Positions 862-11,827 of a stretch of 64,000 bases of DNA are shown one piece after another; the stretch's first letter is position 1, and each line of letters starts with the position of its first letter. The notes under the pieces were generated by a model. The model searched no databases. It was not told the origin of the DNA and saw nothing but the letters and a program-made list of their open reading frames with translations. Made by a program: the position numbers and the translations under genes. This stretch comes from a virus, in IMG/VR virus record IMGVR_UViG_3300042305_002088, positions 39,279-103,278 of that record. One strand, 5' to 3'.

Positions 862-3408
862 GTGTATAGGAACGCATCATATAACCCACGAGAAGGAACT
901 GTTTATCTTAGAACTTGGACTGAAGACGGTGTAAGAATTGATACTGAAGTTCCGTTTACTCCTTATCTCTTTACAGAAAGTAAAGATGCTAAGGATGCTA
1001 CTTCTATTTTCAAAACACCCCTAAAGAAGCATTATTTCAAGAATACCTTTGAGCGTACTAAATTTGTTCAAGAAACTAAGAATCCAAGATTATTCGGTAA
1101 TCTATCAGTGGATCAGCAGTTCTTAGTAGATAGATTCAAAGAGGAAGTTCATAAACCTGAGTTCAGTCAGTTCCCTCTCAAGGTTTACTTTATAGATATC
1201 GAAACATACTCACCAGGTGCGTTTCCTATTCCTAAGTATGCAAAAGACCCAGTCAATCTTATTACAGTATTAGATACACTTAGCGGTAAAATACACACTT
1301 GGGGTCTCAGAGAAGACTACAAACCAAAGCTTGATAACGTCACATACTATTGCTGTAAGACCGAAGGTGAGTTGTTTGAAAGATTTGTTAATTTTTGGAA
1401 GAAAGATCCTCCAGATATCTTAACTGGTTGGAACACCGAGCAGTTCGATATTCCCTATATCATTAATCGCGCTAAGAACTTACTCGGTGAAGACTTTATT
1501 CGTCAACTCTCACCCGTCGGTCAAGTTCATTACAGAGAAAATTTTGCCAAGTTTGGTAAAGAAATGGGTAGATGGTATATCTCCGGGGTTAGCTGTTTGG
1601 ACTACATGGAGATTTATAAAACTTATTCAAAGGGTGATAGAGAGTCGTTCTCTCTGAATTATATCTGTGAATATGAACTTGGTGAAGGTAAACTTGCTAT
1701 TAATGCTACTAACCTTTCATCTCTATCTGAAACTGACTGGGAAAACTTTGTAGATTATAACATTCAAGATGTTGATCTGCTTCGTAAACTTGAAGAGAAG
1801 CTTAACTATCTTAAGATTATTCGTCTCTTATCCTATAAAGGTTGTACCAACTTCGAAAGAGCTTTAGGTAAGGTATCGATTGTAACTGGTGCTATGACAC
1901 TTCAGGCACAGAAACAAGGCTACATTATTCCTACCTTTAAGAATGAGACAGAAAGAGAGTCCCTTGAAGGTGGCTATGTCCGTGATCCGGAAAGAGGCCT
2001 CAAAGAGGCTATCGTATCCTTTGACGTTAACTCTCTATACCCGAATACCATTATCACTCTTAATATTGGTTCTGAGACTAAACTTGGTAAAATTGTAACT
2101 GGGGATCCAGAATACGATAAAGAGGTTGAGATCAAGCTTGAGTCCGGAGGAATGTTTAAAGTAACTGTAGCTAAACTTAAGAAGTTTCTAAAAGACGAAA
2201 ACGTAGCTCTATCAAAGGCTGGTGTACTTTACTCTCAGAAATTTAAAGGTGTTTGCCCTAACTTGATTAATAGTATCTACGAAGAGCGAGTGTACGCTCG
2301 AAATGAGATGATTAAACTCAAGAAGACAAAACAAAAGGATAAAGAGACTGTTGGTAAGATTCAGTATTTTGATACTCTTCAATATACGTTAAAGATTCTT
2401 CTTAACTCCATCTACGGAACGTTTGCTAACAAGCATTCAGCGTTCATGGATATTGATAACGCCTCGTCTATTACTCTAACCGGTCAAGCAGTTGCTAAAG
2501 CTGGTGGAGCTATTGTAGATGCCTGGGCTAAAGAAAAGTTCGGTATTGATGAGTCACTTATTATTGCTGGTGACACCGACTCTCTTTATACCACAATTCA
2601 GCCTATTCTTAATAAGCTTAATTTACCCCTTGTAAAAGACGGTACTATTACCCAAGAGGCTCATAAGATTATTAATGCCATGGAAAAGCATCTCAATACT
2701 GAGATCATTAACTGGGCTAAAACCGATCTTAACTCTGCTGATCCTCGATTCGTCTTTAAACGAGAAGCTATTGCTGATGTAGGCTCCTTCTTAATGAAGA
2801 AACGCTATATTATTCATATCCTGGATGAAGAAGGTGTTCCTACTAATAAGTTCAAGTACGTAGGTGTTGAACTAGCTCGGTCAACAACCCCTAAGGAAGT
2901 TAAGGCTTTGATTAAGAAAACCATTGATACGGCCTTTCTATCAAAGGATGTTAAAAAGACTAACGAAGTGTTCCGAGAAGCTTATGACCACTTTAAAAAT
3001 TTAGATATAACCGAGGCTGCCTTTCGCAAAGCTGTTAAAGAGCTTGAGAAGTATTCAGGTGGCGCCTCACTTCATAAGTTTAACCTCGGTACACCCTGCC
3101 ACGTTAAAGCGGCATTAGCTTACAACTTCCTTCTCGAAAAAATGGGCATACAGACCAAATACGAACAGATTAATTCAGGGCAGAAGATCAAATATTTTTA
3201 TGCGATGAAAAACCCCTATGGCTTAGATGCCGTAGCGTTTGCAAGTGAGTATCCAAAAGAGTTTCATGAGATTAAAATCGATTACGATAAAATGTTTGGT
3301 AAGATTGTTGTACCACCAATTGAGGCTGTTTACGAGGCTATTGGATGGAGAATACCTGTGATCGGTAAAGAAGTACAAACTGATTTATTTGATTTATTTG
3401 GAGATTGA
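862..3408 (+). CDS. 43: DNA polymerase, family B (T4 gp43-like)
   Basis: Replicative polymerase with proofreading exonuclease, 848 residues (T4 gp43 is about 900). Exonuclease motifs: YFIDIE (catalytic D112, E114), GWNTEQFD (D196) and YNIQDVDLL (D303). Polymerase motifs: FDVNSLYPN (motif A, D388), K-x3-NSIYG from residue 511 (motif B), and GDTDS (motif C, D571 and D573). The C-terminus DLFDLFGD resembles the short hydrophobic tail with which T4 gp43 docks on the sliding clamp, here encoded at 12253. The start is GTG, preceded by a purine-rich AGGTAG. All catalytic residues are present. Confidence 0.97.
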   Translation: MYRNASYNPREGTVYLRTWTEDGVRIDTEVPFTPYLFTESKDAKDATSIFKTPLKKHYFKNTFERTKFVQETKNPRLFGNLSVDQQFLVDRFKEEVHKPEFSQFPLKVYFIDIETYSPGAFPIPKYAKDPVNLITVLDTLSGKIHTWGLREDYKPKLDNVTYYCCKTEGELFERFVNFWKKDPPDILTGWNTEQFDIPYIINRAKNLLGEDFIRQLSPVGQVHYRENFAKFGKEMGRWYISGVSCLDYMEIYKTYSKGDRESFSLNYICEYELGEGKLAINATNLSSLSETDWENFVDYNIQDVDLLRKLEEKLNYLKIIRLLSYKGCTNFERALGKVSIVTGAMTLQAQKQGYIIPTFKNETERESLEGGYVRDPERGLKEAIVSFDVNSLYPNTIITLNIGSETKLGKIVTGDPEYDKEVEIKLESGGMFKVTVAKLKKFLKDENVALSKAGVLYSQKFKGVCPNLINSIYEERVYARNEMIKLKKTKQKDKETVGKIQYFDTLQYTLKILLNSIYGTFANKHSAFMDIDNASSITLTGQAVAKAGGAIVDAWAKEKFGIDESLIIAGDTDSLYTTIQPILNKLNLPLVKDGTITQEAHKIINAMEKHLNTEIINWAKTDLNSADPRFVFKREAIADVGSFLMKKRYIIHILDEEGVPTNKFKYVGVELARSTTPKEVKALIKKTIDTAFLSKDVKKTNEVFREAYDHFKNLDITEAAFRKAVKELEKYSGGASLHKFNLGTPCHVKAALAYNFLLEKMGIQTKYEQINSGQKIKYFYAMKNPYGLDAVAFASEYPKEFHEIKIDYDKMFGKIVVPPIEAVYEAIGWRIPVIGKEVQTDLFDLFGD

Positions 3409-3423
3409 TTTATTATTACAACT

Positions 3424-4254
3424 ATGCTTATATCACACGAAACACCTGTATCGTTGCTTCCATACTCTTGGGGCTATAATGATTACTGCTATTGTTTAGT
3501 ACATCTATTGCCTGAGAATCAAAAATACAAAGACTTCTATTTTAAGTCTGTAGAATACGGACGCAGAGTACTTTTAGACAATTCTATTTTTGAGCTCGGT
3601 ACTGCTTTTGATCCTGAGCAGTTTGCTTATTGGGTTAAAGAGCTTAAGCCTTTTGAATATGTTATCCCTGATGTCTTAGAAGATACTACAGGTACTTGTA
3701 TGTCCATGGATAACTTCTTGTCCAAGTATTCCGATCTCCCTGGTCGTAAGATCGGTGTTGTTCAGGGCAAGACATATCAAGATATTGTTGACTGTTATCG
3801 TTTTGTAGCACCAAAGGTTGATAAAGTCGCCATTTCTTTTGATTACTCGTATTATCTAGAAAATTGCGATTGGTCTCAGATTAATGTTCCCGGTTTTGTT
3901 AAGAAGCAGGAAGATAACAAATGGCTAAAGTACGCTATTGGTAGAGTTAAACTACTGGATGACCTCTATGACGATGACGTTCTTGATGTAAATAAGCCAC
4001 ACCACCTACTTGGGGCATCATTACCTTGGGAGTTTGCTCTGTATGCAGATAATTACCTTAGTGAATATATTGAAACTATTGATACTTCAAATCCAATTGT
4101 CGCTGGTATTTTGGGGAAAAAGTACGAACCTGAATACGGTCTGTCAGAAAAATGGTCAGTGAAGCTTGTTGACTTTATTGATGCTGAATTGACCACCCAG
4201 CAAATTTACGATTCGTTCTGGAATATTACACAGTTTAGAAATCTATGCCGGTAG
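3424..4254 (+). CDS. dpdA: DpdA/TGT-like 7-deazaguanine transglycosylase
   Basis: 276 residues resembling the compact phage members of the tRNA-guanine transglycosylase superfamily, which exchange guanine for a 7-deazaguanine base. Visible landmarks are LLDNSIFELG near residue 50, VIPDVLED near 80, GVVQGKTYQDI (the TGT-type G-x-QG base-pocket loop) near 112, HHLLGAS near 193 and ETIDTSNP near 218, which carries a candidate catalytic Asp. The CxCxxC zinc site of bacterial Tgt is absent. That, and its place among DNA replication genes, favours DNA rather than tRNA as substrate (inference). Its last 10 nt overlap the formyltransferase start. Function is inferred from family motifs and context; I could not search for homologues. 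Confidence 0.68.
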   Translation: MLISHETPVSLLPYSWGYNDYCYCLVHLLPENQKYKDFYFKSVEYGRRVLLDNSIFELGTAFDPEQFAYWVKELKPFEYVIPDVLEDTTGTCMSMDNFLSKYSDLPGRKIGVVQGKTYQDIVDCYRFVAPKVDKVAISFDYSYYLENCDWSQINVPGFVKKQEDNKWLKYAIGRVKLLDDLYDDDVLDVNKPHHLLGASLPWEFALYADNYLSEYIETIDTSNPIVAGILGKKYEPEYGLSEKWSVKLVDFIDAELTTQQIYDSFWNITQFRNLCR

Positions 4255-4793
4255 CACAGCCCTGGGTTACGTTCTTTAGTCAGACCGGTTCTGAGATTTA
4301 TAAAATATCTAAAAGAATTAATCGTGTTCCAGATGTTATTGTAACAAATAAAACTAAAGATAAAGTTTTAGAAATTAACGAAGATTTATTCTTTGAATAT
4401 GTAGATAAAATTGTTTGGTTACCTAAAAAACCTACTATAGAAGAATACAGACAAGTTATTCCTAAAGGCGCTTTTGTAACTCTTCATGGCTGGTTAAGAA
4501 TTATTCCTCCTGAGATTTGTCAAGAGTTTGAAATTTATAATTTACATCCTGCTCCAATCCATTTAGAAGGTTATGACAAATATAAAGGTAAAGACCCTCA
4601 AGTTAGAATCTTTGAAGATAAAGCTACATATTCCGGAAATGTTATTCATGAATGTATTGCCGAGCTTGATGCAGGAAAGATTCTAGCTCAAAATCAATTT
4701 GATGTTCGAGGTTTTGATCTTGATATGGTTTTTAAACTAACACATTCTAAAGCTACGGAACTTTGGTGTAGCTTTTTAGAAAATAGAATATAA
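4245..4793 (+). CDS. Formyltransferase (GART/PurN fold), putative deazapurine N-formylase
   Basis: 182 residues with the formyl-transfer core of the PurN/Fmt family. The line TLHGWLRIIPPE matches the 'AGFMRIL' strand, YNLHPAP gives the catalytic N99 and H101, and ELDAGKIL gives D142. Spacing of the three residues is close to that of E. coli PurN (N106, H108, D144). The expected reaction is transfer of formyl from 10-formyl-tetrahydrofolate to a primary amine. It starts inside the end of the dpdA-like gene (10 nt overlap), so it is translationally linked to it, and queF lies nearby. PreQ1 carries a free aminomethyl group, so I infer that the acceptor is preQ1 or preQ1-DNA rather than glycinamide ribotide. 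It is shorter than PurN (about 212). Confidence 0.75.
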   Translation: MPVAQPWVTFFSQTGSEIYKISKRINRVPDVIVTNKTKDKVLEINEDLFFEYVDKIVWLPKKPTIEEYRQVIPKGAFVTLHGWLRIIPPEICQEFEIYNLHPAPIHLEGYDKYKGKDPQVRIFEDKATYSGNVIHECIAELDAGKILAQNQFDVRGFDLDMVFKLTHSKATELWCSFLENRI

Positions 4794-4804
4794 TATAGAG
4801 AGTT

Positions 4805-5353
4805 ATGAGAGTTTCGTTTACAGGTGCGCAGAGTACTGGTAAGACTACATTACTGAATAAGTGTAAAGAAATCTACAAAGATTATAAATTTGTAGACGAG
4901 GTTACTCGTTATGTTCGTCGGACTTATGACGTTAAGATTAACGAAATTGGTGGTACTGAAACTCAGCTTTACATTTTAGCTGAACATATTAAGAACCATC
5001 TTAAACTAGATGAAAACTTGATGCTTGATCGTTGTATCTTAGATGGTTATGTTTATACAAAATATCAAGTGGAACAGGGTAAAGTAAAAGAAGATGTTTT
5101 ACGAGCTTTTAATGGAGTGTTTAATGCACTCTTTGATAGACTTGACTACGTCTTTTATACTGATCCGTCGGATGTAAAATTAGTAGATGACGGAGAACGT
5201 TCTGTCGATTTTAAATTTAGAGATGATATTATTGTACTTTTTGAAGATTTGATTACACATAAAATATCTCCTAAGAATAGAGAAAAGATTATCCGGCTTA
5301 AAGGCTCTGTCGAACAGAGAATGAAAACAATTGAAAAATATTTAAAACAATGA
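4805..5353 (+). CDS. P-loop ATPase/kinase, NadR-like AAA_28 type
   Basis: 182 residues. The Walker A motif GAQSTGKT is at residues 7-14. A second conserved block, LMLDRCILDGYVYTKY (about 74-89), looks like the DRS/substrate region of nucleoside-kinase-like NadR domains. FVDEVTRYVRR (about 33-43) is also typical of this group. The likely activity is phosphorylation of a nucleoside, nucleotide or cofactor precursor; the substrate is unknown. It sits between the formyltransferase and queF and overlaps queF by 4 nt, so it probably belongs to the same operon. Whether it has a part in base modification cannot be decided from sequence. Confidence 0.65.
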   Translation: MRVSFTGAQSTGKTTLLNKCKEIYKDYKFVDEVTRYVRRTYDVKINEIGGTETQLYILAEHIKNHLKLDENLMLDRCILDGYVYTKYQVEQGKVKEDVLRAFNGVFNALFDRLDYVFYTDPSDVKLVDDGERSVDFKFRDDIIVLFEDLITHKISPKNREKIIRLKGSVEQRMKTIEKYLKQ

Positions 5354-6294
5354 ACACTAACTTAAACGACATCGCATCCAAGTCACTCGGTTCTTCAGCA
5401 TCTTACGCTGTTTATACTGACAGTCATGACGCTTCACTTCTCAACCCAATGCCTAGAAAGCTCGCCCGAGACGGCTGGAATATTAAAGGTACTGAGTTTG
5501 TAGGGTACGACACTTGGCATTGTCATGAATCTACTTTTCTTTTAAACAACGGAGCCCCTATCGCGGGTACTTTAAAATACACATATTCTTCTGACTCAGA
5601 GTTTATGGTAGAATCAAAGTCAGCTAAACTTTATCTTAATACATTTGATATGTGTAAGATGGGTCAGTCCGTTGATACAGCTATTCAAAATTACGAATTA
5701 CAGGTTAAGGCTGATCTTGAAAAAGCTTTAGAAACTTCAGTTGATGTTAAGTTTTTTAAATCTGGTGACGACGAGATGGGGTTATTTCCTATGACAGGTT
5801 ATCTCGATCTTCAAACCTTTTTAGGTAAAGATCTTGAAGAGTTAGAAATTAACGATTACAACGCTGAGAGTAATCACTTAGAGTTTGAAAAAGCTAATTT
5901 CTCAGGTTATGGTTATAGTGTTAACGAAAATAAAGCACTATTTGCAAACAAATACTTTACTAATGCACTAAGATCTCGTTGCCGTCATACGAAGCAAAAA
6001 GATACAGGAGCTGCTTACATCTCTATCAATTCCTTAGATTCAGTCATTAAACCAGCCTCCCTCTTTAAACAGATTATCTCTCTGAGAGAGGTTAATGAGT
6101 TTCATGAATTCTGTGCAGAAAAACTTTATACAGAAATTATGAAGTGCCCGGAGGTTGAATCCTGTTGTGTCACTTTACTTTATTCTAGGAGAGGCTCTTT
6201 AGATATTAATCCTACCCGAGCTACATCCTTCGATATGCTACCACCTGCACTGTACAATACAAAATACTACACTAAAAAGGCAATGGGGCAGTAG
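5350..6294 (+). CDS. queF: QueF-like 7-cyano-7-deazaguanine (preQ0) reductase
   Basis: 314 residues in the bimodular (E. coli-type, 282 residue) arrangement. The N-terminal half carries the QueF signature ESKSAKLYLNTF (88-99). The C-terminal half has the nucleophile C211 in SRCRHTKQKDTG with acid D218, NEFHE at 249-253 (substrate His/Glu) and YSRRGSLDINP (278-288). The enzyme reduces the nitrile of preQ0 to the aminomethyl of preQ1 with two NADPH, the only known biological four-electron nitrile reduction. All active-site residues are present. The related amidinotransferase-type QueF-L is a possible alternative, but the intact NADPH-type signature favours the reductase. The start ATG at 5350 overlaps the previous stop. 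Confidence 0.88.
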   Translation: MNTNLNDIASKSLGSSASYAVYTDSHDASLLNPMPRKLARDGWNIKGTEFVGYDTWHCHESTFLLNNGAPIAGTLKYTYSSDSEFMVESKSAKLYLNTFDMCKMGQSVDTAIQNYELQVKADLEKALETSVDVKFFKSGDDEMGLFPMTGYLDLQTFLGKDLEELEINDYNAESNHLEFEKANFSGYGYSVNENKALFANKYFTNALRSRCRHTKQKDTGAAYISINSLDSVIKPASLFKQIISLREVNEFHEFCAEKLYTEIMKCPEVESCCVTLLYSRRGSLDINPTRATSFDMLPPALYNTKYYTKKAMGQ

Positions 6295-6329: not shown

Positions 6330-6704
6330 ATGGCTAACACAGAAAATAAAATTGCAGTATTCTTCGACTCAGTCGGTAGAACAATCCTCGGAGAAAAATT
6401 AGAAGATAAAACAACTGATAAAGTTCTTTCAATTAAGAACCCAGCTGTTGTTCACATTATGCCTAATCAGCAAACAGGCCAACTTCAGCTTCAAATTCTT
6501 CCTTTGTTCTTTAAGGAGTTCTTAGCTGATAAAGATTCTGGTACTATTTGGAGCTACAATCGAGAAAACATCACTGAAGCTGTTGACGTAACCTTTGACT
6601 TTAAACTTGAAGCTCAATACCGTCAAATCTTTGCTTCAGGCCCAGCCCCTGCACCTCAGCAGCCACAAGGTTCACCAGAAGTTATTAAACTTTTTGACGA
6701 ATAG
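6330..6704 (+). CDS. Conserved hypothetical phage protein between pol cassette and uvsX
   Basis: 124 residues, not recognised. The N-terminus KIAVFFDSVGRTILG is followed by a beta-rich middle and a Pro/Gln/Ala linker (about 104-114), ending in the acidic EVIKLFDE. There is no signal peptide or membrane segment. The 35 nt before it contains TATAAATT. My recollection is that marine T4-like phages carry a small unassigned gene at this place upstream of uvsX; I could not check this. A DNA-replication accessory role is possible from context only. Confidence 0.6.
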   Translation: MANTENKIAVFFDSVGRTILGEKLEDKTTDKVLSIKNPAVVHIMPNQQTGQLQLQILPLFFKEFLADKDSGTIWSYNRENITEAVDVTFDFKLEAQYRQIFASGPAPAPQQPQGSPEVIKLFDE

Positions 6705-11161: not shown

Positions 11162-11827
11162 ATGTTAAGAAGTAAAAAGAAACTCCAATACGCTAACCAC
11201 AACGTAATTCATTCTCAAGAAGAGATTAATGAGCTTATTGAGAATGGAGCTAAAGCTTACGAAGCATATCTTGATGCCTTAGGTTTTGACTGGCGCAATG
11301 ACCCTAATAGTTCAGATACACCTCGTCGTGTTGCCAAGGCATTTGTTACAGACCTAGCTATGGGCTGTTATACAGAACCACCTAAAGTGACTGCCTTTGA
11401 TAACGTAGATAGTTACGATGGTATGGTCTGTCAGAATAACATTAAGGTTGTTTCGATGTGCTCTCATCACCATGCACCTTTTATGGGTGTTGCGCACGTT
11501 GCCTATATACCTGCTGCAAATGGTAAAGTAATTGGTCTCTCGAAGCTCAATCGTATTGTTGATTGGTTTTCACGCCGCCCTCAAGTTCAGGAGAACCTTA
11601 CTATGCAGATTCACCAGTATATTGATGCAGTCTGCGAGAAGAATAAAGGAGTAGCTGTCTTAATTGAAGCTAATCATACTTGCTGTTCTAATCGCGGTAT
11701 TAAACATGATAGTACTATGAGGACTGCTAGAATGTCTGGATCTTTCTTAGATGAAAAAGATAATTCAAGGGCTGAGTTTTACAAATTTGTTGAATTTGCC
11801 CAAAACAATAAAGGCCACATTTCGTAA
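11162..11827 (+). CDS. folE: GTP cyclohydrolase I (FolE)
   Basis: 221 residues; converts GTP to 7,8-dihydroneopterin triphosphate, the shared first intermediate of folate and of queuosine/7-deazaguanine. The catalytic zinc ligands are C100 and H103 in SMCSHHHAP and a Cys in HTCCSNRGI (174-175). The signature [20 protein letters not shown] (125-144) is diagnostic. It lies 3 nt after gp32. Given queF and a dpdA-like gene in the same window, supplying deazapurine precursor is the likeliest reason to carry it. Topping up folate (also the formyl donor's carrier) is an alternative. Confidence 0.92.

What the first reader, a model, noticed from the sequence alone, without database searches (positions are those of the whole stretch)
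3424..6294. Four-gene 7-deazaguanine DNA-modification cassette between polymerase and uvsX
A TGT/DpdA-like gene, a formyltransferase, a P-loop kinase-like gene and queF are packed with overlaps (10 nt; 4 nt) and gaps of at most 15 nt, so they act as one unit. DpdA-type enzymes put 7-deazaguanines into DNA, and QueF makes preQ1. The combination predicts that the phage DNA carries a preQ1-derived base, probably as protection from restriction. The set of parts in this order in a T4-type genome is unusual as far as I know.
Basis: partly seen in the sequence, partly recalled or inferred. Interest (0 to 1): 0.86.

Follow-up and report, generated by a model that had tools for sequence, protein, structure and literature searches.

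The report
Phage guanine-replacement cassette with nucleotide kinase
A T4-like virus carries a compact gene set that probably swaps guanine in its DNA for a decorated 7-deazaguanine, and an overlooked kinase that travels with the swapping enzyme suggests the swap may happen on free DNA building blocks before replication.

Summary
Four packed genes (3424-6294) encode a DpdA-type transglycosylase, a formyltransferase, a P-loop kinase and QueF. The contig also has folE (in the window), queD and queE; queC is missing from this 103-kb fragment but present in a 149-kb relative. An AlphaFold model (pLDDT 95) finds the bacterial DNA preQ0 insertase DpdA (7ui4) and a tRNA-guanine transglycosylase as its best PDB matches.

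The cassette is not unusual. Flavobacterium phage immuto has the same order, and 37 of 55 distinct IMG/VR loci carry all four parts. The transglycosylase belongs to the small family found in Campylobacter phage CP220, whose dG is 100% replaced (PMC8306585). From memory I identify it with "DpdA3" and the formyltransferase with "DpdN"; that paper was not held.

What I add is the kinase. It lies within 6 kb of 53 of 55 distinct loci, including systems without formyltransferase or QueF. Among 50,697 phage records it was detected only in the two DpdA3-bearing phage groups. The 9g, nt-1 and KVP40 clusters lack it. Its model resembles deoxynucleoside and thymidylate kinases.

I therefore favour base exchange on dGMP (or dG), phosphorylation, and incorporation as a modified dNTP. 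This step is inferred (about 0.45); held literature treats DpdA as acting on DNA.

The parts
3424..4254 (+). DpdA-type 7-deazaguanine transglycosylase (DpdA3-like; same family as phages CP220 and immuto)
   Evidence: phrog_19058 3.5e-48; 46% identity to immuto 'DNA guanine transglycosylase', 40% to CP220; AlphaFold pLDDT 95, best PDB fold hits 7ui4 DpdA (1.3e-5) and 7ovo TGT (2.4e-5); D52, D83, H194, G197, D220 invariant in 78 sequences
4245..4793 (+). Formyltransferase, GARFT-like; predicted to formylate the aminomethyl group of preQ1 (DpdN-like, from memory)
   Evidence: PF00551 1.8e-8; N99, H101 and D142 invariant in 50 of 50; 42% identity to immuto homologue
4805..5353 (+). P-loop kinase of the deoxynucleoside/thymidylate kinase fold; predicted to phosphorylate the modified deoxynucleotide (or deoxynucleoside)
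   Evidence: PF13521 1.5e-15; PDB profile hits TMPK and dNK 1.7e-7; Foldseek dCK/TMPK/dNK from 3e-8; within 6 kb of 53/55 DpdA3 loci
5350..6294 (+). QueF, NADPH-dependent preQ0 reductase (preQ0 to preQ1)
   Evidence: PF14819 1.3e-20 and PF14489 1.5e-9; Cys211, Asp218 and the ESKS motif at 88 present
11162..11827 (+). FolE, GTP cyclohydrolase I, first step of the preQ0 pathway
   Evidence: PF01227 1.2e-49; 55% identity to immuto FolE
862..3408 (+). Family B DNA polymerase directly upstream (15-nt gap); presumed to use the modified dNTP
   Evidence: PF00136 1.1e-28; the same polymerase lies directly upstream of DpdA3 in several related loci

Best explanation
The cassette makes a 7-deazaguanine nucleotide and puts it into phage DNA in place of dG, probably at most or all positions. 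FolE, QueD, QueE and QueC make preQ0; QueF reduces it to preQ1. The DpdA3-like enzyme exchanges guanine for the deaza base, most likely on a free deoxynucleotide such as dGMP rather than on finished DNA. The kinase then re-phosphorylates the modified nucleotide so that, after a further kinase step, the phage DNA polymerase can use it as a modified dNTP. The formyltransferase caps the aminomethyl group, giving 7-(formylaminomethyl)-7-deazaguanine. Shown here: gene identities, folds, conserved active-site residues, and the near-invariant pairing of transglycosylase and kinase. Inferred: the nucleotide-level site of action (about 0.45 on its own), complete replacement in this virus, the order of formylation and insertion, and protection from restriction.
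For: Parts and residues. Pathway genes on the contig; QueC in a close 149-kb relative. Transglycosylase fold. Kinase fold of the dNK/TMPK type. Kinase within 6 kb of 53/55 distinct loci not seeded by the kinase (QueF 51, formyltransferase 38). CP220, with 100% dADG (PMC8306585), has DpdA3 followed directly by the kinase and has neither formyltransferase nor QueF next to it, so the kinase is not tied to one decoration. The kinase was detected only in the two DpdA3-bearing phage groups among 50,697 records, and 54 of 55 kinase-seeded IMG/VR loci carry DpdA3 or another pathway gene. DpdA-kinase co-inheritance: Mantel r 0.75, permutation p about 0.0005, equal to DpdA-QueF. The 9g, nt-1 and KVP40 clusters lack the kinase. 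More distant DpdA relatives in BSP7 and Youna2 have a different thymidylate-kinase-like gene overlapping DpdA. Nucleotide-pool enzymes recur beside DpdA3: GMP reductase, MazG/PRA-PH pyrophosphohydrolase, HD phosphohydrolase, purine-type phosphoribosyltransferase. A modified-dGTP route had been proposed for Campylobacter phages (cited in PMC6884629).
Against: No biochemistry and no mass spectrometry of this virus. DpdA enzymes are described as acting on DNA (PMC12783734), and from memory Cui et al. 2023 concluded that insertion is post-replicative. The charge of DpdA3 (median pI 5.5) does not differ clearly from DpdA1/DpdA2 (5.6-6.0), so it gives no support. No MazG, PRA-PH or HD enzyme was found on the window's contig or its 149-kb relative. 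Sequence-profile similarity of DpdA3 to 9g DpdA1 and nt-1 DpdA2 is not significant, so membership rests on fold. The kinase substrate cannot be told from sequence.
Confidence: 0.5

Rival explanations
1. Post-replicative insertion: DpdA3 exchanges G in finished phage DNA as other DpdA enzymes are thought to do, the formyltransferase then acts on DNA or on free preQ1, and the kinase is an accessory dNMP kinase that only boosts dNTP supply.
For: The accepted view of DpdA (PMC12783734); [quoted passage not shown] best fold match is the DNA preQ0 insertase 7ui4.
Against: Does not explain why this kinase tracks DpdA3 in 53/55 loci and is absent from the 9g, nt-1 and KVP40 deazaguanine clusters; a general dNTP-boosting kinase should also occur in phages without DpdA3.
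Confidence: 0.35
2. The kinase modifies the base itself: it phosphorylates a group on the deazaguanine, or an intermediate of it, as phage P-loop kinases do for 5-hydroxymethyl-dU (from memory), giving a hypermodified base.
For: P-loop kinases are known in phage base hypermodification (from memory); the kinase sits next to the decorating formyltransferase.
Against: CP220 has the kinase, yet its DNA carries simple dADG (PMC8306585); preQ1 and ADG lack a hydroxyl on the side chain; the fold is that of dNK/TMPK.
Confidence: 0.06
3. The genes raise queuosine precursor supply for host tRNA rather than modify DNA.
For: Phages with pathway genes but no recognised DpdA were suggested to act on tRNA (PMC6884629).
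Against: A dedicated DpdA-type enzyme is present; relatives CP220 and CPt10 have fully replaced dG in DNA; the formyltransferase has no known role in queuosine synthesis.
Confidence: 0.04

Closest known systems
Flavobacterium phage vB_FspM_immuto_2-6A cassette (NC_055915)
   Same: Same order: DpdA, a small gene, formyltransferase, 'thymidylate kinase', QueF, with QueD, QueE, FolE just upstream; 46%, 42%, 33% and 35% identity.
   Different: Family A polymerase downstream instead of PolB upstream; a MazG/PRA-PH-like hydrolase two genes upstream; small gp205 between DpdA and formyltransferase.
Campylobacter phages CP220/CPt10 (Firehammervirus)
   Same: DpdA3 followed directly by the same kinase family; 40% DpdA identity; known 100% replacement of dG by dADG (PMC8306585).
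   Different: No formyltransferase or QueF beside it, so a different base; an HD-kinase fusion gene upstream; pathway genes scattered.
DpdA3 and DpdN of Cui et al. 2023 (NAR gkad657; from memory, paper not held)
   Same: DpdA subfamily linked to complete G replacement, and a predicted dPreQ1 formyltransferase.
   Different: That work, as I recall it, infers post-replicative insertion and does not list the kinase as a core part; I could not check this or which phages carried the formylated base.
2-aminoadenine (Z) pathway of cyanophage S-2L (PurZ, DatZ, MazZ)
   Same: Works alike in the proposed scheme: nucleotide-level synthesis from dGMP, pool-clearing hydrolase, then polymerase incorporation.
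   Different: Different enzymes and a different base; an analogy only.

Membership tests
DpdA/TGT base-exchange family | TGT-type TIM-barrel fold | tested here: met
   Model pLDDT 95; top two PDB hits of 350,542 chains are 7ui4 DpdA and 7ovo TGT
DpdA/TGT base-exchange family | Catalytic aspartates (general acid/base and nucleophile) | tested here: inconclusive
   D52 (LDNS, cf. LDSG in 9g DpdA1), D83 and D220 are invariant in 78 sequences, but assignment to TGT Asp102/156/280 is by motif only; profile comparison E 0.18
DpdA/TGT base-exchange family | Zinc motif (CxCxxC...H) of tRNA-acting TGTs | tested here: not met
   No CxCxxC motif in the sequence and no conserved cysteine set in the alignment; so not a canonical tRNA TGT
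DpdA3 subfamily | Homology to the small DpdA of Campylobacter CP220 | tested here: met
   40% identity over 99% of length, E 5e-44; phrog_19058 for both
DpdA3 subfamily | Complete replacement of dG in virion DNA | not testable with these tools
   Needs mass spectrometry; known for CP220/CPt10, not for this virus
Formyltetrahydrofolate-dependent formyltransferase | Asn-x-His...Asp catalytic triad | tested here: met
   N99, H101, D142 invariant in 50/50; PF00551 above cut-off
DpdN (dPreQ1 formyltransferase) | Formylation of preQ1 or dPreQ1 | not testable with these tools
   Inferred from operon with QueF and DpdA; name from memory
QueF nitrile reductase | Both QueF domains, catalytic Cys and Asp, and the E-S-K-S substrate/NADPH motif | tested here: met
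   PF14819 and PF14489; Cys211, Asp218, ESKS at 88
Deoxynucleoside / dNMP kinase | P-loop, DR motif and dNK/TMPK fold | tested here: met
   G7, G12, K13, Q54, R76, R132 invariant; PDB profile and fold hits
Deoxynucleoside / dNMP kinase | Substrate is a 7-deazaguanine deoxynucleotide or deoxynucleoside | not testable with these tools
   Inferred from association only

The most novel reading that the evidence does not exclude
DpdA3 is a nucleotide-level transglycosylase: it swaps guanine for a 7-deazaguanine on dGMP (or dG), and its partner kinase phosphorylates the product, so the phage replicates with a modified dGTP. This would explain how these phages can replace all guanine and would reverse the view that 7-deazaguanine DNA modification is always post-replicative.
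Probability: 0.45. Interest if true: 0.8.

Novelty: new variant of a known kind. Interest (0 to 1): 0.6.

Why it matters
Some phages replace all their guanine, and how a base-exchange enzyme could reach every G is unexplained. A kinase that is a near-constant partner of this DpdA subfamily, and absent from the other DpdA clusters examined, offers a simple testable answer: the exchange is done on free nucleotides. It would add a second route, besides the aminoadenine route, to fully base-substituted genomes, and would offer enzymes for making modified dNTPs.

Tried and rejected
Megablast of the region against phages found nothing. PDB sequence search with the DpdA3 profile gave no hits, and profile comparison with 9g DpdA1 and nt-1 DpdA2 was not significant, so fold was used. 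Net charge as a sign of DNA versus nucleotide substrate did not discriminate. A search for MazG, PRA-PH and HD hydrolases on the window's contig and its 149-kb relative was negative, so a dGTP-removing enzyme is not shown for this virus. The kinase tree has weak deep branches and was not used to argue ancestry. The Cui 2023 paper was not held, so DpdA3/DpdN naming rests on memory.

Full report
WHAT IS THERE. The window is bases 39,279-103,278 of a 103,278-base IMG/VR contig of a T4-like myovirus: PolB, UvsX, T4-type terminase, tail sheath, gp44-like clamp loader, baseplate wedge. Directly after the PolB gene lie four genes on the + strand with 15-nt and 11-nt gaps and 10-nt and 4-nt overlaps. 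Pfam gives a formyltransferase, an AAA_28 kinase and QueF. FolE is at 11162-11827. QueD and QueE, and a second AAA_28 kinase beside QueE, lie upstream on the contig (L002 15404-14958, 14773-14015 and 14012-13380, minus strand). QueC was not found on this fragment but is present in a 148,804-base relative.

THE TRANSGLYCOSYLASE. The 3424 product has no Pfam hit. It matches phrog_19058 and is 46% identical to the immuto protein annotated 'DNA guanine transglycosylase' and 40% to a CP220 protein. An alignment of 78 diverse relatives gave a model with pLDDT 95 and pTM 0.92. The two best PDB matches are the DNA preQ0 insertase DpdA (7ui4, E 1.3e-5) and murine TGT with queuine (7ovo, E 2.4e-5). The TM-scores (0.54 and 0.57) show a shared fold with much divergence. 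D52, D83, H194, G197 and D220 are invariant; their assignment to TGT catalytic residues is by motif and is inferred. At about 270 aa it is shorter than the DpdA enzymes compared (317 aa in 9g, 464 in nt-1, 413 in 7ui4).

THE OTHER ENZYMES. The formyltransferase keeps the Asn-His-Asp triad in 50 of 50 sequences. QueF has both domains, Cys211, Asp218 and the ESKS motif, as expected for a preQ0 reductase. The kinase profile finds thymidylate kinase and deoxynucleoside kinase in the PDB (both 1.7e-7) and NadR (1.5e-5). Its model (pLDDT 88.6) matches human deoxycytidine kinase, Aquifex thymidylate kinase and Drosophila dNK.

HOW COMMON IT IS. Scans of IMG/VR gave more than 550 relatives of the transglycosylase, of which the best 80 were kept, with 36 from the first scan. 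After clustering at 85% identity and keeping loci not seeded by the kinase with at least 3 kb downstream, 55 loci remain. The kinase lies within 6 kb in 53, QueF in 51, formyltransferase in 38, and all three in 37. One of the two exceptions has the kinase further away in the same locus. Thirteen loci have kinase and QueF but no formyltransferase. CP220 has only DpdA3 and kinase side by side. The kinase is therefore the partner shared by systems with different end products.

SPECIFICITY OF THE KINASE. tblastn of the kinase over 50,697 phage records hits 21, all in the Campylobacter and Flavobacterium groups that carry DpdA3. One of them, CC_R7, shows only the paralogue next to dUTPase, and no DpdA3 hit. 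The same paralogue overlapping a neighbour of dUTPase in IBB_35 suggests that the family handles deoxynucleotides. Of 55 kinase-seeded IMG/VR loci, 36 show DpdA3 in view, 18 another pathway gene, and 1 none; the kinase patterns were drawn from these families, so this number is biased upward. The QueF search hits 46 Vibrio records and the kinase search hits none of them. The QueF cluster of KVP40, the DpdA2 cluster of nt-1 and the DpdA1 cluster of 9g have no such gene. Co-inheritance of DpdA and kinase is as strong as of DpdA and QueF (Mantel r 0.75 each, permutation p about 0.0005).

CONVERGENT SIGNS. More distant relatives of this DpdA in Bacillus phage BSP7 and Weizmannia phage Youna2 have a different thymidylate-kinase-like gene overlapping DpdA by 4 nt. 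In Cellulophaga phage phiST a P-loop protein (AAA_18, 9.4e-7) is adjacent and a MazG enzyme is three genes upstream. Immuto relatives have a PRA-PH/MazG-like hydrolase two genes upstream (38 loci, all with DpdA3), and one clade has a GMP reductase in the operon (19 loci, all with DpdA3). CP220 has an HD-kinase fusion upstream. A purine-type phosphoribosyltransferase recurs near DpdA3 (35 of 40 hits) and is also on the window's contig. These are nucleotide-pool enzymes.

MECHANISM. The simplest reading is that base exchange happens on a free deoxynucleotide and the kinase returns the product to the dNTP pool. This would allow full replacement, as known for CP220 and CPt10 (PMC8306585). A modified-dGTP route had been proposed for Campylobacter phages before a DpdA was known there (cited in PMC6884629). 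Against it stands the accepted view of DpdA as a DNA-level enzyme (PMC12783734) and, from memory, the post-replication conclusion of Cui et al. 2023, which was not held. The charge test did not discriminate, and no dGTP-clearing enzyme was found on the window's contig. I give the cassette identity (7-deazaguanine DNA modification by a DpdA3-like enzyme, probably formylated preQ1) about 0.8 and the nucleotide-level step about 0.45.

NOVELTY. The cassette is a member of a known kind and exists in an isolated phage. The kinase as a core part, and what it implies, I did not find described in the papers available here; absence from that library is weak evidence.

Noticed in passing
L002 13380-14012 (-), contig position 13380-14012, outside the window: A second kinase of the same AAA_28 family sits 2 nt from queE and near queD; similar second copies occur beside queE in related contigs.
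   Followed up: partly
L002 3102-3599 (+): Purine-type phosphoribosyltransferase (PF00156) of a cluster that often lies near DpdA3; it could salvage the guanine released by base exchange.
   Followed up: partly
L132 8569-9528 and related loci: GMP reductase (PF00478, 7.9e-56) inside the DpdA3 operon of one clade; all 19 loci with it have DpdA3.
   Followed up: partly
L195 6431-6805: A 124-aa gene between DpdA and formyltransferase that looks by its histidine motif like a HIT-family nucleotide hydrolase (sequence); not searched.
   Followed up: no
PQ092953 (Campylobacter phage CC_R7): A CP220-like phage in which neither DpdA3 nor its adjacent kinase was found while the dUTPase-linked paralogue remains; possible joint loss or assembly gap.
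   Followed up: partly
window 6330-6704: 124-aa ORF of unknown function between queF and uvsX, conserved as a cluster (C9, 15 members) in related loci.
   Followed up: no
L034 5871-6449: A 192-aa gene of unknown function inserted between DpdA and formyltransferase in a close relative.
   Followed up: no
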